Source: Pseudomonadota bacterium | Lineage (GTDB): Bacteria > Pseudomonadota > Gammaproteobacteria > Acidiferrobacterales > Acidiferrobacteraceae | Direction of reading: 5' to 3' | Length of the DNA stretch: 7,223 nt | Assembly: GCA_021795255.1 (NCBI GenBank) | Contig: JAJYPQ010000189.1 | Span: 1 to 7,223, forward strand | Shown here: in pieces, positions 1 through 7,223 of the stretch | Position numbering within the stretch: position 1 is the stretch's first letter | Layout: every line of letters begins with the position of its first letter | Position numbers and translations under genes: made by a program | The notes under the pieces: generated by a model | What the model was told of the DNA's origin: nothing | The model's database searches: none | What the model saw: the letters and a program-made list of their open reading frames with translations, nothing else

Positions 1-1920
1 TGGATCTACCATCTCATCCGCGCGTATGGCGTCGTGCCTCCGGTGCCGGGTGGCTGGATTCCGGCGGCCCTGGCCGTCGGGCTTGCGGTCGGGTTCGGGA
101 TTGAGGGGTGGCGGTTGGCCACGCGCACAAATGTCCGGCACATTCGCGGGTTCATTTTACACAGAGATCCTCGCGTGGTTGCGCGAGCCTTGCGCCCTGG
201 CCGGGATGAGGATCCCGGCATTCGTATCCACCCCAAGATCCAGATTTCGGCGCGCCAGGAAACCCACCATTTTATGGTGATGGGCGGCACGGGGGCGGGC
301 AAGACCACAGTCCTCTGGCCGTGGATTCAGCAAGCGATCGCACGGGGTGATCGTGTACTAATCTTCGATAGCAAAGGGGATTTCACCCAGAAAGTCCCAG
401 AGCCGTTCACCCTTTTGTCCCCGACTGACGCACGATCCAGCCGGTGGGTTTTGGGGAAAGACATCCGCACGAAATTGGAGGCGCAGGCGTTGGCCACAAC
501 ACTCATTCAAGAGCCGCCCGGCGGATCGAAGGCCGATCCGATGTGGATTCAGGGTTCGCGGGCGTTGCTCGCTGGCCTCATAACGGACTTGCAAACGAGG
601 TTCGGAAAAAAGTGGGATTTTGCCCATCTGGCCTACGAGTCCGCGGCGGCGCTGGCGGATTACCAGCGACTGAAGGCCGTGATCGCGCGCGAAGCCCCGT
701 TATGTTTGGCCTTGTTGGGTGGCGAGGATGCTAAGGAGGCCGGCCACACAACGATGGGGTTTTTGATGCAGATCGTCTCTTCTTTAACGAACGTCATCCA
801 CATCGGCGTCGCCACGCACGATCACAAAGCTAATCCGGGGTGGAGTGTAAGAGGGTGGCTGGCAGGCAAGACCCCGGGCACGGTCGTGCTAGGGTTTCGT
901 GGCGAGCAGTCCAAAGAACTGAGCCAGGCTTTTGTGGCGTCGATAATAGAACGGGTCGTAAGGCAAATCGGAGGGATGCCTGATGCGGCGCCAGAGAAGA
1001 GGCGGATATGGCTATGCATCGACGAGGCACCCGAGGCGGGGCGCATCCCGTCGATAACGACATCATTGACGACGTTGCGGAGTAAAGGGACACGGACCTT
1101 GCTTGGTTTTCAAACCTTTGCTGGCGTCAGGGAGGTGCATGGACGAGACGCGGCGCAGATCTGGGAGGGGCAAGTCGACATCAAAATTATCGGGAAGCTT
1201 GGAGCGACACCGGATCAGGAGTGGGCATCGAAGCTGCTGGGTGATCGGGAGGTTGAGCGTTACACGCATCAAGTTACGCAAAGCAATGGTGTGATGTCGC
1301 GGTCTGGATCGTGGCAACGCATGCGCGAGCCTCTTCTGATGCCCTCGGCCTTCGGGCAAGAATTGGGCATGCAGAAAGATCGACGCGGGCGACTGCAAGG
1401 CCCCCGCGCTCTTATGATCGCCGGAGGGCAGGCCGCTGTCCTCGACTGGCCCCTTACTCCGCGTACCGTTTTGCGGGATCCTGTGATTGATGCGCGCTGG
1501 ATTCAACCGGGCTACAACGCGCCCGCGTGGGGCCGGGACCCGCCGATGGTGGCCCCGGAGATTGCGGGCTCGCTTCCTAAATCCAAGGAAGAGCCGAAGG
1601 GCCCAGAAAAGGAAGAGGAGAAGATGCCAGTCGAGAAGGTGAAACCAAACATGGTGCCGATGCCTGGGGCTAACAAGCCCGCACAGAATGGCGGCGCGAA
1701 AAAGGGCGGTCCCGATCCTTTCAGTGATCTAGTATGCGGTATACTGGCTGATACGATCGCGCCGGGATCGTCCCTTATCATAGACATCGCCAACGCCGCA
1801 GGCGATGCGACAACCCCAACAGCGCCCGGCGCTGCGCCCCCGGTTCCTGGAATGCCGGAGGCGGAACCGGGCCATGCCGAGCCTCAAGATCAAGAACCAG
1901 AGCCAGAACCGGGAGACTGA
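1..1920 (+). CDS. traD: Type IV coupling protein (TraD/TrwB/VirD4 family ATPase), 5' end outside window
   Basis: This is the inner-membrane ATPase that links the relaxosome to the mating channel and helps drive DNA transfer. The frame is open from base 1, so the gene starts upstream; the GTG at 34 is only the first internal start-like codon. Counting residues from that GTG, a hydrophobic stretch at about 8-26 is probably the last N-terminal membrane helix. The Walker A motif GGTGAGKT is at 84-91, FDSKGD at 111-116, and a Walker B-like segment IWLCIDEA at 325-332. It is followed by TLRSKGTRTLLGFQ, typical of the TraD/TrwB DNA-binding ATPase domain. Residues about 510-628 form a low-complexity Lys/Glu/Pro tail ending in EPEPEPGD, and such tails often contact relaxosome proteins. 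The next gene starts 2 nt after the stop, so the two are probably cotranscribed. The family call is firm; the exact subfamily (TraD, TraG or VirD4) is less certain. Confidence 0.9.
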   Translation, partial: WIYHLIRAYGVVPPVPGGWIPAALAVGLAVGFGIEGWRLATRTNVRHIRGFILHRDPRVVARALRPGRDEDPGIRIHPKIQISARQETHHFMVMGGTGAGKTTVLWPWIQQAIARGDRVLIFDSKGDFTQKVPEPFTLLSPTDARSSRWVLGKDIRTKLEAQALATTLIQEPPGGSKADPMWIQGSRALLAGLITDLQTRFGKKWDFAHLAYESAAALADYQRLKAVIAREAPLCLALLGGEDAKEAGHTTMGFLMQIVSSLTNVIHIGVATHDHKANPGWSVRGWLAGKTPGTVVLGFRGEQSKELSQAFVASIIERVVRQIGGMPDAAPEKRRIWLCIDEAPEAGRIPSITTSLTTLRSKGTRTLLGFQTFAGVREVHGRDAAQIWEGQVDIKIIGKLGATPDQEWASKLLGDREVERYTHQVTQSNGVMSRSGSWQRMREPLLMPSAFGQELGMQKDRRGRLQGPRALMIAGGQAAVLDWPLTPRTVLRDPVIDARWIQPGYNAPAWGRDPPMVAPEIAGSLPKSKEEPKGPEKEEEKMPVEKVKPNMVPMPGANKPAQNGGAKKGGPDPFSDLVCGILADTIAPGSSLIIDIANAAGDATTPTAPGAAPPVPGMPEAEPGHAEPQDQEPEPEPGD

Positions 1921-1922
1921 AC

Positions 1923-2342
1923 ATGCCACCAAAAGAACCGAATGCCGCGTCGATGACGCAACCCCTCGGCCCAGTCTGTAAGGTCATCCTCGCCGGTGAG
2001 GTGTTGGCAGTCTCGCCCAGCGTCAAGCATAAGAGCCGCTTGATTACACCATGGACGCTCGTCGTGTCTGGAGAATCAGGCCCGCTGTCGGTCACCGTCG
2101 CCGACCCCGCTGGCATCCGGGTCGCCGAGAAACTGAAGGTTGGGGATTTTGTCGTGGCCGAGGCCGCCCTGATTCCGAAGGGCGCACGGTGTGAGATCCG
2201 CGCGCTCTTGATCCAGAGCAATCGGGAGTCGCGATTGCCGGTGATTCCCGCGAAATCGGGGCAGGTCGCCGACCCTGTCGGGGGTGACGCGGAAGGCGCG
2301 GACGGTGAGGGGCTTCCGTGGGAAGACGCGAGCGCTGGATAG
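1923..2342 (+). CDS. Small OB-fold / SSB-like protein (putative)
   Basis: A 139-aa protein that is not recognised with certainty. Residues about 16-98 look like a single OB-fold: alternating beta-rich segments, a TPWTLVV strand at 42-48, then VAEKLKVGDFVVAEAAL at 67-83, which resembles the 'KGd.V.V.G.l' strand pattern of single-stranded DNA-binding proteins. The tail is Gly/Asp/Glu-rich and ends in LPWEDASAG. This loosely recalls the acidic SSB C-terminus that recruits partners, although the classical DDDIPF tip is absent. The ATG is 2 nt after the coupling-protein stop, with GGGAG just upstream, so translational coupling is likely. A second ATG at codon 11 is an alternative start. The position suggests a role in handling transferred DNA, but this is inference; another small OB-fold protein is equally possible. 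Confidence 0.7.
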   Translation: MPPKEPNAASMTQPLGPVCKVILAGEVLAVSPSVKHKSRLITPWTLVVSGESGPLSVTVADPAGIRVAEKLKVGDFVVAEAALIPKGARCEIRALLIQSNRESRLPVIPAKSGQVADPVGGDAEGADGEGLPWEDASAG

Positions 2343-2441: not shown

Positions 2442-2714
2442 ATGCAAACACAGACGCAAGATTGCGCATGCACGTTCGATTACTACGCCGACGCAGATGG
2501 TCCGGAATGTGTTGCGGTCGCAGATTGGCGGGCTGCAGTAAACAACGCGGGGGTCGATGCGCCAATCAAGGAGGTAAATGATTTAGTCGCCCACGCACCC
2601 GCATGCCTTGCGGCACATGGGTCCCCGGATGACTGGGGGAGATATGGGCTGCTTGCGCTGGCAGCCCGCGCGGGGGAACCCCTCACATCTCTTATGGACC
2701 TTGTGGCGGCGTAG
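2442..2714 (+). CDS. Hypothetical 90-aa protein
   Basis: No family is recognised. The ATG at 2442 is chosen over the in-frame upstream start at 2346 because GGGAGG lies at 2431-2436 with normal spacing, and because a promoter lies between the two starts. The product is mildly acidic with a Thr/Gln-rich start (MQTQTQD). It has cysteines at 8, 10, 23 and 55, too scattered for a clear metal site. The C-terminal half is Ala-rich and probably helical (WGRYGLLALAARAGEPLTSL). There is no signal peptide or membrane segment. The gene is a complete one-gene transcription unit: its promoter is upstream and a strong intrinsic terminator follows 20 nt after the stop. It lies between the transfer block and ardC, so an accessory role in transfer or establishment is possible but not shown. 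Confidence 0.65.
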   Translation: MQTQTQDCACTFDYYADADGPECVAVADWRAAVNNAGVDAPIKEVNDLVAHAPACLAAHGSPDDWGRYGLLALAARAGEPLTSLMDLVAA

Positions 2715-3074: not shown

Positions 3075-4028
3075 ATGAAAACGCACGAGCGCAAGACGGA
3101 CGCCAGAAGCCAAGTCAAAACCGAGGAGGCTCAAGCCTCAGCATCCGCAGGGGGTCAACCCTTTGACATCCACCAAACCATCACGGATCGGATCATTGGG
3201 GCCATGGAGCAAGCGCGCGGCACCGGGCGGCGCCTTTGGGACTCGCAACCGTCTTTACCTCTGAGCCTCACCACGGGCAAGCCCTATAGCGGCGTAAACA
3301 TAATCATCCTTTGGGGGGCAGCCCTTAGCCGTGGTTATACCTCCCCCTACTGGCTGACGTACAAGCAGGCGGCCGACAAGGGCGGGCAGGTCCGCAAGGG
3401 CGAGCACGGCACGCATTGCGTCTTCTATAAGCCATGGGAGTCGCAGGAGACCAACCACGAAACCGGCGAGGTCGAGACCAAGACCGGCGCAGTCCTGAAG
3501 TCCTTCCGCGTATTCAACCTCGACCAGATCGACGGCATCGAGGCCCCGGCCCGCGAACCCCGTCCGGACTTCCAGGCCATCGAGGACGCCGAGCGCATCC
3601 TGCAGGCGAGCCCGGCCCGGATCATCGAGGGCGGGGCGCAAGCCTTCTACCAACCAGCCACCGATACGATCCACCTACCGACGCGCGAGGCCTTCATAAA
3701 CCGCGAGGCGTTTTACAGTGTCGCCCTCCACGAATTGACCCATTCGACCGGCCACGCATCGCGCCTGGCCCGCGATTTTAGCGGACGGTTTGGCGATGCC
3801 GCCTACGCCTTCGAGGAGCTGGTGGCCGAGCTTGGGTCGGCCTTCCTGGGCGCGGATCTCGGAATCCTGAACGCGACCTTACCCGATCATGCCGATTATC
3901 TGGCCCACTGGATCAAGATTTTGCGCGAGGACAAGAAGGCCATCTTGACGGCCGCCGCGCAGGCATCCAAGGCGCACGCCTTTATCCGGGGCTTGCTGGC
4001 CGACCAGGACGGGCAGGTAGCGGCGTAG
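3075..4028 (+). CDS. ardC: ArdC-like antirestriction protein: ssDNA-binding domain plus zincin metallopeptidase domain
   Basis: A 317-aa protein of the ArdC family, related to plasmid TraC-type proteins. Known members protect plasmid DNA from host restriction during conjugative entry. The N-terminal domain (about 31-150) has the family's features: GKPYSGVNIIILWGAA at 68-83, YTSPYWLTYKQA at 88-99 and VRKGEHGTHCVFYK at 106-119. This domain binds single-stranded DNA in characterised members. The C-terminal zincin domain carries HELTH at 219-223 (zinc ligands His219 and His223, catalytic Glu220), followed by STGH and EELVAE at 247-252, which probably supplies the third ligand. Both domains look intact, so the protein is probably active. 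The ATG at 3075 is chosen over the in-frame GTG at 3024 because GGAG lies 7 nt upstream and because the GTG falls inside the leader hairpin. Its 3' end appears duplicated after the acrVA2-like gene. Confidence 0.92.
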   Translation: MKTHERKTDARSQVKTEEAQASASAGGQPFDIHQTITDRIIGAMEQARGTGRRLWDSQPSLPLSLTTGKPYSGVNIIILWGAALSRGYTSPYWLTYKQAADKGGQVRKGEHGTHCVFYKPWESQETNHETGEVETKTGAVLKSFRVFNLDQIDGIEAPAREPRPDFQAIEDAERILQASPARIIEGGAQAFYQPATDTIHLPTREAFINREAFYSVALHELTHSTGHASRLARDFSGRFGDAAYAFEELVAELGSAFLGADLGILNATLPDHADYLAHWIKILREDKKAILTAAAQASKAHAFIRGLLADQDGQVAA

Positions 4029-4038
4029 GCCACGGAGA

Positions 4039-4061
4039 GCCGGGCGCTGTAGGCGCCCGGC
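4039..4061. repeat. 23-bp GC-rich hairpin, copy 1
   Basis: The arms GCCGGGCGC (4039-4047) and GCGCCCGGC (4053-4061) flank a TGTAG loop, 11 nt after the ardC stop. The whole 23-bp unit recurs as an exact reverse complement at 7162-7184. No T-run follows, so it is not a standard intrinsic terminator. It may stabilise a 3' end, act with Rho, or be a mobile palindromic repeat. Confidence 0.8.
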
Positions 4062-4124
4062 GAACCGTCGGGGCCGTATCAACTAAAACGCCAAGGTCAA
4101 AATCTCGTGAGGAAGGTTGGTTGG

Positions 4125-4155
4125 GGGCCGGCCCTTAGCGGAAATGGCTAAAGGC
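4125..4155. repeat. Adjacent palindrome and stem-loop upstream of the operator module
   Basis: GGGCCGGCCC at 4125-4134 is a perfect 10-bp palindrome. It overlaps a second inverted repeat: GCCCTTAGC at 4131-4139 pairs with GCTAAAGGC at 4147-4155, with one mismatch and a 7-nt loop. The two structures are mutually exclusive where they overlap. Function unknown. Confidence 0.5.
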
Positions 4156-4219
4156 TGGACCGTACAGGACGCAGCGTCGCCGACCCCCTCCTACCGTGCC
4201 AAAAAATGCCCCTATTATA

Positions 4220-4270
4220 GATGATTCATCATCGAAATATATTTAATAAATATGAGGCGTCATCTATATC
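4220..4270 (+). promoter_or_regulatory. Paired-operator promoter module, copy 1 (upstream of acrVA2-like gene)
   Basis: The left palindromic site GATGATTCATCATC (4220-4233) and the right site ATGAGGCGTCAT (4252-4263) have centres 31 bp apart, about three DNA turns. A degraded -35 TTTAAT (4242-4247), a 17-nt spacer and -10 TATATC (4265-4270) place the right site between the promoter boxes and the left site just upstream. The layout matches copy 2 at 6397-6449 base for base in spacing, although the boxes and palindromes here are less perfect. A shared CGCCGACCCCCT lies upstream at 4178-4189. A repressor bound to the right site would block RNA polymerase. Confidence 0.65.
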
Positions 4271-4427
4271 ACAGGCATTCGGACTCGCCGTCGTCTTCGA
4301 ACGCGAGATTGGATACATTAATATCCGCGAGATTGTGGCGAACGGCGCGGAACTGGATCTACATTTTACCCCCGCGACCCTATCGGAATGCGTGGACGGT
4401 CGGGCCCTCGACGTGAGCGCCGACTAG
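4221..4427 (+). pseudogene. Small ORF upstream of acrVA2-like gene; no credible start codon
   Basis: The open frame ends at TAG 4425-4427, 39 nt before the acrVA2-like start. From about 4281 it reads like real coding sequence (GLAVVFEREIGYINIREIV...), with mostly G/C third positions. The only ATG, at 4221, lies inside the left operator and upstream of the module's own -10, so a transcript from that promoter would not contain it. There is no ATG, GTG or TTG in frame after the promoter, and no ribosome site. The first 18 codons are operator DNA: copy 2 of the module also reads as an open peptide, but every codon difference changes the amino acid. The likeliest reading is a gene whose 5' end was replaced by the promoter module; use of a rare ATT start is an alternative. 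No family is recognised, and no helix-turn-helix is visible. Confidence 0.4.
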
Positions 4428-4466
4428 GAGCCCATCACGACACCCACACTGAGAGGAGGTAACACA

Positions 4467-5507
4467 ATGAGTGTTTCTTGTCGCCCATGTGACTACGCAG
4501 CGACGTTATCGCGGATACCAAAACTGTCGCGGATGATTGATCAGAGGCGTGCGCTCCGAGGAGCACACCGTGATTGGCCGGACTGGTGTTATCTGCCGGA
4601 CGATTTGTGGACTAAGGATGGTTGGCCTTTCAATATTGGGGAAGCCCTCAACGATCCGGATGCGCTAGACCAAATACAGGGAGATATCGTTCTTGCGATA
4701 TGGCGCATAACGAAAGGGATATACCGTTTTGATTCCACGGTTTATAGCGCCATTAGTGATACCCCTATAACCGGGAATATCCCCTGTGAAATTCTGTTTC
4801 ACTTGCCGGAGTGGTGCGTGTACGTGGAGACGCCCGCCCAGAACTACGCTGATGATAACCTGCATGGATTTTTTGCGACCCTAAACTGGGATGAGGGCGG
4901 GGAGATGGAACTGCACCTATTGTTGGACAGGGATGCGGGGCTACAGTCTGTCGTTCTACCATTAGGCTCATGGACACTCGACGATGCGGTGCGAAAATCC
5001 GAGAAGGGAACCGCGGAATGGCTTGAGTACGTGAAGCCATCAATGAAACAACTGGGGGTACATGAATGGGAACAGTACGCTCTCGGGGAACGCGCGACGC
5101 CTAGCGCGCTGGCGCCTCTCGTGTCGCTGTTGGTGTACCTCTGTAGTGAGAATGCCGAGTTCGGGAGCGGGACACGGCCCACCAGACCACAGCCCAAGAA
5201 CACCAAGCGCGGGCCGCGCATATTTCCTGCGGACAAGCCGACGACCTGGGCCATAGGTGTGCGTATGGGCGCGGCGTTGCGGCGCGAGTATCGCAATGAG
5301 GATTCCCAACCGCAAGGAGGTAGTCACGCCAGCCCCCGGGGACATATCCGACGCGCGCACTGGCACAGCTATTGGACCGGCCCCAGAACCAGCGACGCGC
5401 GCACCCTGATCGTGCGCTGGATACCGCCAATCCCTGTCAATCTTAATGACCATGATGACCTTCCCGCCGTGGTTCGCGCGGTAGGCAACGCTGATGACAA
5501 GGCGTAA
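4467..5507 (+). CDS. acrVA2: AcrVA2-like anti-CRISPR protein (putative inhibitor of Cas12a expression)
   Basis: A 346-aa protein that matches, from memory, the AcrVA2 family (Moraxella bovoculi AcrVA2 is about 320 aa). The shared landmarks occur in the same order: a Trp/Tyr-rich N-terminal segment (DWPDWCYLPDD, 36-46), AIWRITKGIYRFD at 77-89, LPEWCVYVET at 113-122, an LLLDRD strand at 151-156, LVYLCSENAE at 222-231, and the C-terminal signature HIRRAHWHSYWTG at 293-305 with VRWIPPIPVN at 316-325. Characterised AcrVA2 lowers Cas12a by recognising the nascent N-terminus and triggering loss of its mRNA. Family members are also found where no Cas12a is known, so the target here is uncertain. The start is well fixed by GAGGAGGT at 4453-4460. 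The extra C-terminal tail (about 326-346) and the linker at 234-258 are poorly conserved. The gene sits in a cassette behind an operator-controlled promoter next to ardC, consistent with an anti-defence role. Confidence 0.8.
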   Translation: MSVSCRPCDYAATLSRIPKLSRMIDQRRALRGAHRDWPDWCYLPDDLWTKDGWPFNIGEALNDPDALDQIQGDIVLAIWRITKGIYRFDSTVYSAISDTPITGNIPCEILFHLPEWCVYVETPAQNYADDNLHGFFATLNWDEGGEMELHLLLDRDAGLQSVVLPLGSWTLDDAVRKSEKGTAEWLEYVKPSMKQLGVHEWEQYALGERATPSALAPLVSLLVYLCSENAEFGSGTRPTRPQPKNTKRGPRIFPADKPTTWAIGVRMGAALRREYRNEDSQPQGGSHASPRGHIRRAHWHSYWTGPRTSDARTLIVRWIPPIPVNLNDHDDLPAVVRAVGNADDKA

Positions 5508-5509
5508 TC

Positions 5510-5569
5510 AACAAGCACGCCTTCATTAAGGGCTTGCGGGCCTAGCAGGGGCGGGAGGCTGCGGCGTGA
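5510..5569 (+). pseudogene. Degenerate remnant of an ardC 3' end
   Basis: Just after the acrVA2-like stop, the frame from 5510 reads NKHAFIKGLRA, TAG, QGREAAA, stop. The ardC C-terminus reads HAFIRGLLADQDGQVAA, stop. From the shared CAC codon (3975 and 5516) to the stop codons (4026 and 5567) the two align without gaps, with 39 of 54 bases identical. Several of the changes are synonymous or conservative (TTT/TTC, ATC/ATT, Arg/Lys). The in-frame TAG at 5543-5545 shows it no longer encodes a full C-terminus. No other ardC sequence precedes it, so it is either the scar of a second ardC copy or one end of a duplicated flank around the acrVA2 cassette. Confidence 0.55.
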
Positions 5570-5576
5570 TTTCCCA

Positions 5577-5607
5577 GGGCCCCGGATAGTGCGGGGCCCA
5601 TTCATTT
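5577..5607 (+). terminator. Intrinsic terminator-like stem-loop
   Basis: A perfect 8-bp stem, GGGCCCCG (5577-5584) with CGGGGCCC (5592-5599), has a 7-nt loop and is followed by ATTCATTT. The T-run is weak. It closes the acrVA2 unit, but it lies only 8 nt before the next ribosome site, so it may also act as an attenuator in that gene's leader. Confidence 0.65.
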
Positions 5608-5626: not shown

Positions 5627-6022
5627 ATGCAGACATTCAGCAACCAGCGCTCATACAACGACCATGTCGATAACGTGATCGCGGGCCCATTGACCCCCCC
5701 CCGCGAGATCCTGGCGCTGATTCGCGCCGGCGCCCGGTTCACTGACCGGACATTGGAGACCGAGTAGAGCCTCGCTCTTTTGCGCGGCCTTGGTCGTGCG
5801 CCAGACCCTGAGCCGTTCTCGAAAGCGTTTTATCGCGGCCGGGCGACAGCGCTGGCCGAGGCCCTGGCACTGTCAGACGTCGAGTCTCAGCAGGGGCCAG
5901 AGGCGGCCTGGGAGGCGTGGGATGAGATGATGGGTTATAGCGACGCGATCGAACATGAATTGATCGACCGCCACAACGCGGTGGCCTGTGCGTCCGGCGA
6001 CGGGCACGCCATCCCCCGTTAG
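5627..6022 (+). pseudogene. Small gene interrupted by an in-frame amber codon (unknown function)
   Basis: A strong GGAGGT at 5615-5620 precedes the ATG at 5627. Codons 1-46 end at TAG 5765-5767. The same frame then stays open, with coding-like G/C third positions, to TAG 6020-6022. The product would be about 130 aa without the internal stop. The first part is MQTFSNQRSYNDHVDNV..., with ILALIRAGARFTDRTLE before the stop. The second part is helical and acidic (FYRGRATALAEALALS; AAWEAWDEMMGYSDAIEHEL). The second part's only start-like codon is TTG at 5780, without a ribosome site, so a nonsense mutation in one gene fits better than two genes. A run of nine C (5694-5702) within the coding part could slip during replication. 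A functional 46-aa peptide cannot be excluded. No family recognised. Confidence 0.55.
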
Positions 6023-6200: not shown

Positions 6201-6396
6201 CGCCATCAAATCCTACCCCAACACCCCCACTAGATCGTCGGCCCGCAGATGCGTGTACCCGCAGGGTCTTGTGTCCCGTGATCGCGGTCACCTGAGCCGT
6301 TCGACCCACAATAAGGCTGGGGAGATCGAATCGGTGCGCGCATTGTAAGCCGGACAGCCTATGCGCCGCCGACCCCCTTACCCCGTCCCCCTAGTG

Positions 6397-6449
6397 TCGA
6401 TGACGCATCATCGAAATTGCTTGAATACATATGATGCGTCATCTATAAT
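6397..6449 (+). promoter_or_regulatory. Paired-operator promoter module, copy 2 (upstream of basic protein gene)
   Basis: The left site TCGATGACGCATCATCGA (6397-6414) is a palindrome with perfect 7-bp arms. The right site ATGATGCGTCAT (6431-6442) is its inverted core, ATGACGCATCAT, 31 bp away centre to centre. The promoter is -35 TTGAAT (6421-6426), a 17-nt spacer and a perfect -10 TATAAT (6444-6449). The right site fills the spacer and the left site ends 6 bp before the -35. This is a classic arrangement for cooperative repression of the gene at 6479. Confidence 0.8.
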
Positions 6450-6478
6450 AGGCCATAGAACAGCACAGGAGCCACCAC

Positions 6479-6718
6479 ATGAGCAGGCAAACCAAGGGAT
6501 CCCTGAGAGCGGCAGGCAACCGGGTCGGCGACGAAAACAAGGCCCCCAAGCGCGGCCGACCGGCCAGCCCCGTCCCGCGCGCCATCCGCAACGCCGAGGC
6601 GGCCCGCCGGTATCGGGCACGCAAAAGGGCGGAGAAGGAGGCGCGGCGGGATCCGCGCCAGATGGTGCGGTCGGCGATCATTGATCTGTCGGCCGTGCCG
6701 ATCTGGCGGAGAGTTTAG
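6479..6718 (+). CDS. Small basic DNA-binding-like protein with AT-hook-like and bZIP-like basic motifs
   Basis: A 79-aa, strongly basic protein preceded by AGGA at 6467-6470 and by the best promoter in the window. KRGRPAS at 24-30 contains the AT-hook core RGRP, which binds the minor groove of AT-rich DNA in known proteins. RAIRNAEAARRYRAR at 34-48 fits the pattern of a bZIP basic region (Asn38, Ala41-Ala42, then Arg46 and Arg48). No heptad leucines follow, so it is not a true bZIP. Similar 'NAE..RRYR.RKR' segments occur in small bacterial plasmid and phage proteins, as far as I recall. The C-terminus (MVRSAIIDLSAVPIWRRV) is more hydrophobic and may mediate self-association. Its place directly behind the paired operators makes autoregulation, and control of the acrVA2 promoter, a reasonable inference. 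No direct evidence shows that it binds these sites. Confidence 0.75.
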   Translation: MSRQTKGSLRAAGNRVGDENKAPKRGRPASPVPRAIRNAEAARRYRARKRAEKEARRDPRQMVRSAIIDLSAVPIWRRV

Positions 6719-6848: not shown

Positions 6849-7139
6849 ATGTCCGATCAATTTTATGAGGTAATGATCAGACCACATGCGTGCGGAGGTG
6901 AGGAGTTTGAGGCGATCACAATCGACGAAGCGTGGGCTGACGAAGATGACTTGATCCAGGCGATAACGGAAGGAGTCGCCCCAGGCAGCCTCGTCAACGT
7001 GAGGGATCTGTGTGGTGCGCAGAATATCCTGGGGCGCATTCACGGCGAGCCGAACCGGGTTTTTGCGGTCATGGGCCCGTCCGCAGGCAGAGAGATCTAC
7101 TACGTCGGGATCTCGTGCATGCCGGATCGGGACGCTTAG
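6849..7139 (+). CDS. Small acidic lysine-free protein (unknown function)
   Basis: A 96-aa protein with GAGGAG at 6835-6840 before the ATG and its own extended -10 promoter. It has 17 Asp/Glu, 6 Arg and no Lys, so it is strongly acidic. The negative charges cluster at 18-34, including EE at 18-19 and DEDD at 31-34. The second half looks like a compact alpha/beta fold (GSLVNVRDLCGAQNILGRI; NRVFAVMG; EIYYVGISC). No signal peptide or membrane helix is visible, and no family is recognised. Small acidic proteins in anti-defence regions are sometimes DNA mimics (as ArdA and Ocr are), but nothing beyond charge and context supports that here. An antisense ORF covers the same bases but lacks comparable start signals. 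Confidence 0.75.
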   Translation: MSDQFYEVMIRPHACGGEEFEAITIDEAWADEDDLIQAITEGVAPGSLVNVRDLCGAQNILGRIHGEPNRVFAVMGPSAGREIYYVGISCMPDRDA

Positions 7140-7161
7140 ATAGAGATACTGACGGGGTGCC

Positions 7162-7184
7162 GCCGGGCGCCTACAGCGCCCGGC
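7162..7184. repeat. 23-bp GC-rich hairpin, copy 2 (inverted)
   Basis: The arms GCCGGGCGC (7162-7170) and GCGCCCGGC (7176-7184) flank CTACA. The unit is the exact reverse complement of 4039-4061. It lies 22 nt after the stop of the acidic-protein gene and ends 1 nt before the AAAGGAGGA ribosome site of the next gene. Confidence 0.8.
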
Positions 7185-7198
7185 CAAAGGAGGACCAC

Positions 7199-7223
7199 AT
7201 GCCGCACATCACGATCAACGAAG
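7199..7223 (+). CDS. Start of a further gene, cut off by the window end
   Basis: An ATG at 7199 follows a strong ribosome site (AAAGGAGGA at 7186-7194). Only MPHITINE is visible, too little to identify. No promoter is seen between it and the acidic-protein gene, so cotranscription is likely, with the hairpin in between perhaps tuning expression. Confidence 0.65.

What the first reader, a model, noticed from the sequence alone, without database searches (positions are those of the whole stretch)
3075..5507. ArdC and an AcrVA2 homologue side by side: an anti-defence island on a conjugative element
An intact ArdC (HELTH zincin) lies about 440 nt before a 346-aa protein with AcrVA2 landmarks (LPEWCVYVET, HIRRAHWHSYWTG, VRWIPPIPVN), downstream of a type IV coupling protein. 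One would act against restriction, the other against Cas12a. By guilt by association, the neighbouring unnamed genes (90-aa, amber-interrupted, 79-aa, acidic 96-aa, and the gene starting at 7199) become candidate anti-defence or establishment genes.
Basis: partly seen in the sequence, partly recalled or inferred. Interest (0 to 1): 0.85.

Follow-up and report, generated by a model that had tools for sequence, protein, structure and literature searches.

The report
AcrVA2/FinQ-family silencer gene beside ArdC
A mobile DNA element, probably from an Acidiferrobacter-like bacterium, carries a member of the protein family that includes both the anti-CRISPR AcrVA2 and the old plasmid transfer blocker FinQ, which suggests the family may be a general gene-silencing weapon of mobile elements rather than an anti-Cas12a tool.

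The parts
1..1920 (+). Type IV coupling protein (TrwB/TraD type), 5' end outside the window
   Evidence: Pfam TrwB_AAD_bind 6.8e-57, TraG-D_C 2e-18; ORF open at window start
1923..2342 (+). 139-aa protein, weak OB-fold hint
   Evidence: PF01336 E=0.011, below cut-off
2442..2714 (+). 90-aa acidic ORF (pI 4.1)
   Evidence: the longer 122-aa reading has no family match at E<=1
3075..4028 (+). ArdC: ssDNA-binding N-terminal domain plus zincin domain (HELTH)
4039..4062 (.). GC-rich palindrome after ardC; perfect inverted copy at 7161-7184
   Evidence: the repeat finder I1
4209..4268 (+). Promoter block upstream of the AcrVA2-family gene (82% identical to 6388-6447); -35-like TTTAAT 4242-4247, 17 nt, -10-like TATATC 4265-4270; dyads 4221-4232 and 4252-4263
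   Evidence: hexamers placed by register with the 6388 copy, not reported by the promoter scan
4221..4427 (+). 68-aa ORF, probably not a real gene as called (its ATG lies in the promoter block)
   Evidence: no family at a meaningful E-value (best phrog_5203 0.018)
4467..5507 (+). AcrVA2/FinQ-family protein, 346 aa
5515..5567 (+). Echo of the ardC 3' end (75% over 53 nt to 3974-4026)
   Evidence: D3; local score 27, best of 500 shuffles 17, best of 120 other stretches 24
5577..5599 (+). Terminator-like hairpin after the AcrVA2-family gene
   Evidence: scan finds 8 in the window, shuffles 6.0, so weak by itself
5627..6022 (+). ORF interrupted by TAG after codon 46; function unknown
6388..6447 (+). 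Twin promoter block upstream of the 79-aa gene; -35 TTGAAT 6421-6426, 17 nt, -10 TATAAT 6444-6449; dyads 6400-6411 and 6431-6442
6479..6718 (+). 79-aa basic protein (pI 12), bZIP-like basic region; candidate regulator of the twin promoters
   Evidence: 109 homologues, 5 of the 7 that bear an organism name are Acidiferrobacter; PF07716 E=0.0037, below cut-off
6849..7139 (+). 96-aa acidic protein, near-orphan
   Evidence: only itself in the protein search; one weak plasmid hit, Rhizobium, E=3e-3; pI 4.2
7199..7223 (+). Start of a further gene, cut by the window end

Best explanation
The 4467-5507 gene is an AcrVA2/FinQ-family silencer on a conjugative or mobilisable element of an Acidiferrobacter-like bacterium. 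SHOWN: it has the AcrVA2 sequence and fold; FinQ is a homologue; its gene and that of a 79-aa basic protein lie behind near-identical promoter blocks with paired dyads. INFERRED: like AcrVA2 (nascent-peptide-dependent loss of cas12a mRNA, published) and FinQ (loss of F tra transcripts, published), it recognises one particular target and lowers that target's mRNA. In this host the target is probably not Cas12a; a transfer gene of a rival element or another defence gene is more likely. The 79-aa protein may bind the dyads and set the timing of expression. ArdC next door is a separate anti-restriction gene of the same element, not a fixed partner.
For: Family; seven residues invariant in 68 sequences including FinQ and phage AcrVA2 (P114, G134, H293, R295, W299, H300, G305). 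FinQ homology: tblastn about 1e-23, 29 of 45 plasmid records listed at even steps are annotated FinQ; FinQ vs PDB AcrVA2 3.6e-17. Window closer to IncI FinQ (L010, L019) than to phage AcrVA2 (L012, L013): blastp 108 and 106 vs 82 and 89 bits; profile of the window's relatives 177 and 164 vs 126 and 139 bits. No Cas12a in 76 genomes carrying a relative, with a working control. Published mechanisms: AcrVA2, PMC13131331 passages; FinQ, PMC8744291 passages. Co-regulation: 82% identical 60-nt blocks; four exact dyads, 0.11 expected, 0 of 200 shuffles.
Against: No activity was or could be tested. The nascent-chain mechanism was read only in reviews or citing papers; the primary preprint is not held. 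The motif AcrVA2 is said to recognise (LSKT) is absent from 33 F Tra/Trb proteins, so FinQ, if it works that way, reads something else. FinQ is described as terminating transcription, which may be a different mechanism. A phage protein annotated FinQ (Erwinia, L016) scores lower than AcrVA2 (72 bits; profile 55). Cas1 is not rarer in carriers (27 of 50) than in a Gammaproteobacteria sample (67 of 185), so another CRISPR target is open. The window's own genome is not held. Allowing one mismatch the dyads number 6 against 2.2 expected, reached by 3 of 200 shuffles, and the promoter scan as a whole is near chance (4 against 2.6). The 79-aa protein as regulator is guesswork.
Confidence: 0.6

Rival explanations
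1. One reading: a working anti-Cas12a protein that protects the element on entry.
For: Fold and motifs of AcrVA2 are kept; one source (UniRef) names the 61%-identical homologue P0002 'AcrVA2 family anti-CRISPR protein'.
Against: 0 of 76 genomes carrying a relative hold Cas12a; the Moraxella/Shewanella AcrVA2 pair falls outside the window's group in a weakly resolved tree; only 17-22% identity to PDB AcrVA2 in the structural alignments.
Confidence: 0.15
2. A FinQ-type fertility inhibitor in the narrow sense: it shuts off transfer genes of co-resident conjugative elements, acting at transcription or transcript elongation rather than through nascent peptides.
For: FinQ homology; 612 of 677 plasmid records with a family member are typed conjugative (mostly redundant enterobacterial and Acinetobacter plasmids, no base rate taken); the gene lies on a stretch with a coupling protein here.
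Against: No rival plasmid or target known; members also occur in 79 phage records, where transfer inhibition makes less sense; of 14 plasmid loci fetched 6 are typed conjugative, 4 mobilisable, 4 non-mobilisable.
Confidence: 0.3
3. The two promoter blocks are single-strand (Frpo/ssi-like) promoters that switch on the genes from the entering T-strand.
For: Both blocks fold as ssDNA hairpins better than most shuffles (+ strand z -2.45 and -3.84); such promoters serve anti-defence genes in plasmid leading regions (PMC11541004 passages).
Against: In both, the -35-like hexamer falls in the loop and a weak inner stem, not in a firm stem; palindromic operators fold the same way; no oriT or transfer direction known.
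Confidence: 0.15
4. The region is a recurring anti-defence island, so the unnamed neighbours are anti-defence genes.
For: ArdC and an AcrVA2-family gene are 438 nt apart.
Against: ArdC near a relative in 2 of 101 loci, and no relative in 63 ArdC viral loci; 112 close neighbours show no anti-restriction family among the 25 of 27 families listed; the 96-aa gene has no homologue but itself in the protein search.
Confidence: 0.2

Closest known systems
AcrVA2 (Moraxella; PDB 7ci1/7ci2)
   Different: About 17-22% identity in structural alignments; outside the window's group in the tree; no Cas12a in 76 genomes carrying relatives of the window protein
FinQ of IncI plasmids
   Same: Homologous (27% over 81% of the query); carried on conjugative plasmids among transfer genes
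   Different: FinQ is on its own long branch; its F-plasmid target has no known counterpart here
ArdC of R388 (PDB 6i89/6sna)
   Same: Both domains and the zincin motif
   Different: Only ordinary divergence seen; activity untested
Anti-defence islands in plasmid leading regions (PMC11541004, passages)
   Same: Known or presumed counter-defence genes close together on a transfer element
   Different: Pairing not recurrent; no oriT search made

Membership tests
AcrVA2 family | Sequence profile similarity to AcrVA2 | tested here: met
   E=2.6e-18 single sequence; 9.2e-35 profile
AcrVA2 family | AcrVA2 fold | tested here: met
AcrVA2 family | Lowers Cas12a or its mRNA | not testable with these tools
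   needs an assay
AcrVA2 family | Host or target cell has Cas12a | tested here: inconclusive
   0 of 76 genomes carrying relatives; the window's own host is not held
FinQ | Sequence homology to FinQ | tested here: met
   blastp 108 bits, E 1.9e-30 against a set of 11 sequences; profile 177 bits
FinQ | Blocks transfer-gene expression of a conjugative plasmid | not testable with these tools
   needs a mating assay
ArdC | ArdcN plus MPTase-PolyVal domains with HExxH | tested here: met
   HELTH read in sequence
ArdC | Anti-restriction activity in the recipient | not testable with these tools
   known for R388 ArdC (PMC7213743 abstract)
Recurrent anti-defence island | The same anti-defence genes recur together | tested here: not met
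   ArdC in 2 of 101 loci; family member in 0 of 63 ArdC loci. None of these loci is from Acidiferrobacter by title, so a pairing confined to that lineage is untested
Recurrent anti-defence island | Lies in the leading region next to oriT | not tested
   no oriT search made
Frpo/ssi single-strand promoter | Hairpin with -35 and -10 both in the stem | tested here: inconclusive
   hairpins form but the -35 hexamer is in the loop and a weak inner stem
Aca-type HTH repressor (79-aa protein) | Helix-turn-helix domain | tested here: inconclusive
   no HTH family hit; only sub-threshold bZIP hits

The most novel reading that the evidence does not exclude
AcrVA2 and FinQ are one family of target-specific, translation-coupled gene silencers used by plasmids and phages. 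Each member reads a different nascent protein, and the invariant H-x-R-x3-W-H-x4-G segment couples recognition to loss of the transcript. Cas12a is only one target among many. FinQ's apparent multi-site termination of the F tra operon is the polar result of such silencing. The window member, with a co-regulated partner, aims at an unknown target in its host or in rival elements.
Probability: 0.35. Interest if true: 0.82.

Novelty: new member of a known kind. Interest (0 to 1): 0.52.

Why it matters
If FinQ and AcrVA2 work alike, a fertility-inhibition mechanism described in 1989 (reference seen) and a recently described anti-CRISPR mechanism explain each other, and FinQ offers an ordinary E. 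coli/F-plasmid system in which to work out how the family lowers an mRNA. It also warns that the label 'AcrVA2 family anti-CRISPR protein', already attached to relatives such as P0002 and P0072, may name the wrong target for many members.

Tried and rejected
LSKT test: 33 F Tra/Trb proteins scanned for [LVIM]SKT; none found, 0.5 expected from shuffles. So a shared LSKT target for FinQ and AcrVA2 is not supported.

Recurring upstream partner: 76 of 101 loci have an upstream same-strand ORF of 70 aa or more near the gene, but by blastp these ORFs group in sets of at most 3, so no common partner gene. By a second ORF picker 39 of 100 upstream neighbours are on the same strand within 30 nt, which may be ordinary operon spacing; no control was run. 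For the Pfam scan I took the same-strand neighbours within 120 nt and under about 900 aa, 114 in all, and left out the two of L086, twins of L085's; 112 were scanned.

Operator and 79-aa gene elsewhere: two exact patterns of the promoter block in viral contigs gave 0. The 79-aa protein gave no plasmid hit, no phage hit and no relative in viral contigs. Samples of genomes gave only distant relatives: 1 of 369 and 2 of 200, one of them the same genome; 20 genomes of one order gave none. No Acidiferrobacter genome could be reached, so copy number of the promoter block and Cas12a in the likely host remain untested.

Rfam: no match at gathering score. tRNA: none. The plasmid DNA search gave 212 records; the 20 rows listed match only within ardC. 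The coupling protein's 12 listed plasmid hits are 23-28% identical (capped at 5000 records).

Cas12a survey limits: 79 loci lie in 76 genomes (L024, L026 and L101 share an assembly with another locus, by record title, and were left out); they are the best 80 of 155 hits; many are MAGs of unknown completeness; the control sample is Bacteroidia, and 196 genomes of another class gave none. 0 of 76 shows that Cas12a is not needed for carriage; it does not show depletion. Cas1 was run on only 50 of the 76 carriers and against a sample not matched by lineage.

Tree: quick method, 67 rows chosen by me from a larger set, 32 of 63 inner branches open, FinQ and several phage members on long branches; the places of FinQ and AcrVA2 are not settled.
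Full report
WHAT IS THERE. The window is a piece of a transfer element: a TrwB/TraD-type coupling protein (1-1920), a 139-aa and a 90-aa ORF, ArdC (3075-4028), the AcrVA2-family gene (4467-5507), an ORF interrupted by TAG (5627-6022), a 79-aa basic protein, a 96-aa acidic protein and the start of another gene. No whole genome is held for it. The closest named relatives point to Acidiferrobacter: the AcrVA2-family protein is 61% identical to an Acidiferrobacter sp. protein, and of the 7 homologues of the 79-aa protein that bear an organism name 5 are Acidiferrobacter, one Acidithiobacillus, one an unclassified gammaproteobacterium. The first two thirds of the AcrVA2-family gene have lower GC (0.52-0.57 in windows 4501-5250) than most of the window (mostly 0.58-0.65), as an acquired gene might.

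ARDC. Both Pfam domains are above cut-off and the PDB match to ArdC is 6e-53. R388 ArdC acts in the recipient against HsdRMS, without needing its protease activity (PMC7213743, abstract). Nothing here is unusual.

FINQ IS IN THE SAME FAMILY. tblastn of the window protein finds 677 plasmid records; of 45 listed at even steps down the ranking 29 are annotated FinQ. An IncI FinQ (L010:6794-7876, from a start upstream of the annotated one) matches PDB AcrVA2 at 3.6e-17. Seven positions are invariant among 68 aligned members, which include FinQ, phage AcrVA2 and the window protein; five of them lie in the H293-G305 segment. In like-for-like comparisons the window protein scores IncI-type FinQ (L010, L019) above the Moraxella- and Shewanella-phage AcrVA2 proteins (L012, L013): 108 and 106 vs 82 and 89 bits; with the profile of its relatives 177 and 164 vs 126 and 139. 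An Erwinia-phage protein annotated FinQ (L016) scores lowest (72; 55). In the tree the window pairs with its Acidiferrobacter relative (100); the FinQ pair falls in the same 33-row group (support 89) and the Moraxella/Shewanella pair outside it, but FinQ sits on a very long branch and half of the inner branches are unresolved.

LITERATURE. AcrVA2 is described as triggering translation-dependent loss of cas12a mRNA through the nascent N-terminal LSKT peptide (PMC13131331, passages); PMC10403363 (passages) cites the same preprint for phage anti-CRISPRs that recognise nascent Cas12a. FinQ is described as terminating F tra transcription at multiple sites, Rho-independently (PMC8744291, passages); its plasmid distribution was surveyed in PMC5696584 (passages). 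Absence of neighbouring Aca genes for AcrVA2 homologues in RefSeq (0%) was noted in PMC6739104 (passages), relatives in huge phages in PMC7162821 (passage) and in a Shewanella phage in PMC10846135 (passages). Searches for FinQ with anti-CRISPR and AcrVA2 with fertility inhibition found 0 papers in the held open-access library; most subscription papers and preprints are not covered, among them the primary AcrVA2 papers.

TARGET. Cas12a (TIGR04330) was found in 0 of 76 genomes that carry a relative. The search works: 7 of 395 Bacteroidia genomes are over the cut-off; 0 of 196 in another class. Against my reading, carriers are not poor in CRISPR: Cas1 over the cut-off in 27 of 50 carriers and 67 of 185 Gammaproteobacteria, samples not matched by lineage. 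So Cas12a is not needed to keep the gene in these hosts, but another CRISPR target is not excluded. An LSKT-like site is absent from the 33 F transfer proteins.

NEIGHBOURHOODS. ArdC-like ORFs occur in 2 of 101 family loci (L008, L035), and the family in 0 of 63 ArdC viral loci; an ArdC-like domain, missed by that search, also lies about 2 kb from the gene in L011 by annotation. Among 112 close same-strand neighbours Pfam hits are few: HTH domains, exonucleases, uracil-DNA glycosylases, mobilisation and replication proteins, transposases, two type VI secretion proteins, one Aca2/YdiL and others (25 of 27 families listed). The ArdC pairing here is therefore probably incidental to both being mobile-element genes.

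REGULATION. Two 60-nt blocks, 82% identical, lie upstream of the AcrVA2-family gene and of the 79-aa gene (alignment). The second has a near-consensus promoter TTGAAT-17-TATAAT (where the scan as a whole finds 4 against 2.6 in shuffles); the first aligns with TTTAAT-17-TATATC. Each block has one ATGA-N4-TCAT dyad upstream of the -35 and one in the spacer: 4 exact sites in the window, 0.11 expected, 0 of 200 shuffles with 4; with one mismatch allowed 6 against 2.2. A homologue of the 79-aa protein, P0227, carries an N-terminal extension that reads like the translated block (SVTRHQNDLIKYDASPII against SMTHHRNCLNTYDASSII), so the block probably accompanies the gene elsewhere; this is 1 of 109 homologues. 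The start of transcription expected before the AcrVA2-family gene lies past the ATG of the 68-aa ORF, which is therefore doubtful as a gene. The 79-aa protein has a bZIP-like basic region (a recalled pattern fits 86 of 109 homologues; Pfam bZIP_2 0.0037, below cut-off). It is my candidate for the factor that binds the dyads; this is inference.

VERDICT. The gene is a genuine, ordinary member of a known family in a mobile setting. The specific claim 'anti-Cas12a' is weak. The valuable point is the FinQ-AcrVA2 kinship, which suggests one mechanism with changing targets and gives a simple laboratory system to test it.

Noticed in passing
L005 1967-8020; L043; L042: In Thioflavicoccus mobilis a family member follows PglZ, brxL and a 114-aa ORF with short overlaps, i.e. 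at the end of a BREX operon; relatives of the 114-aa ORF stand before the gene in L042 and L043, and a BrxL-like ORF recurs in L043.
   Followed up: partly
3974-4026 and 5515-5567: The ardC 3' end is echoed (75%) just after the AcrVA2-family stop, so the gene sits between two ardC-end sequences; perhaps a relic of a second ardC or of cassette insertion.
   Followed up: partly
4039-4062 and 7161-7184: A 24-nt GC-rich palindrome after ardC has a perfect inverted copy before the gene at 7199.
   Followed up: no
5627-6022: An ORF preceded by GGAGG is interrupted by TAG after 46 codons and stays open for 84 more; decay or recoding not examined.
   Followed up: no
6479-6718: The 79-aa protein has 109 homologues at 69-99% identity, while the adjacent 96-aa gene has none but itself in the same database and one weak plasmid hit.
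   Followed up: partly
4195-4290 and 6375-6470: Both promoter blocks fold as ssDNA hairpins better than most shuffles, + strand z -2.45 and -3.84.
   Followed up: partly
34-1917: The coupling protein is far from plasmid relatives: the 12 listed hits are 23-28% identical, which hints at a little-sampled transfer system.
   Followed up: no
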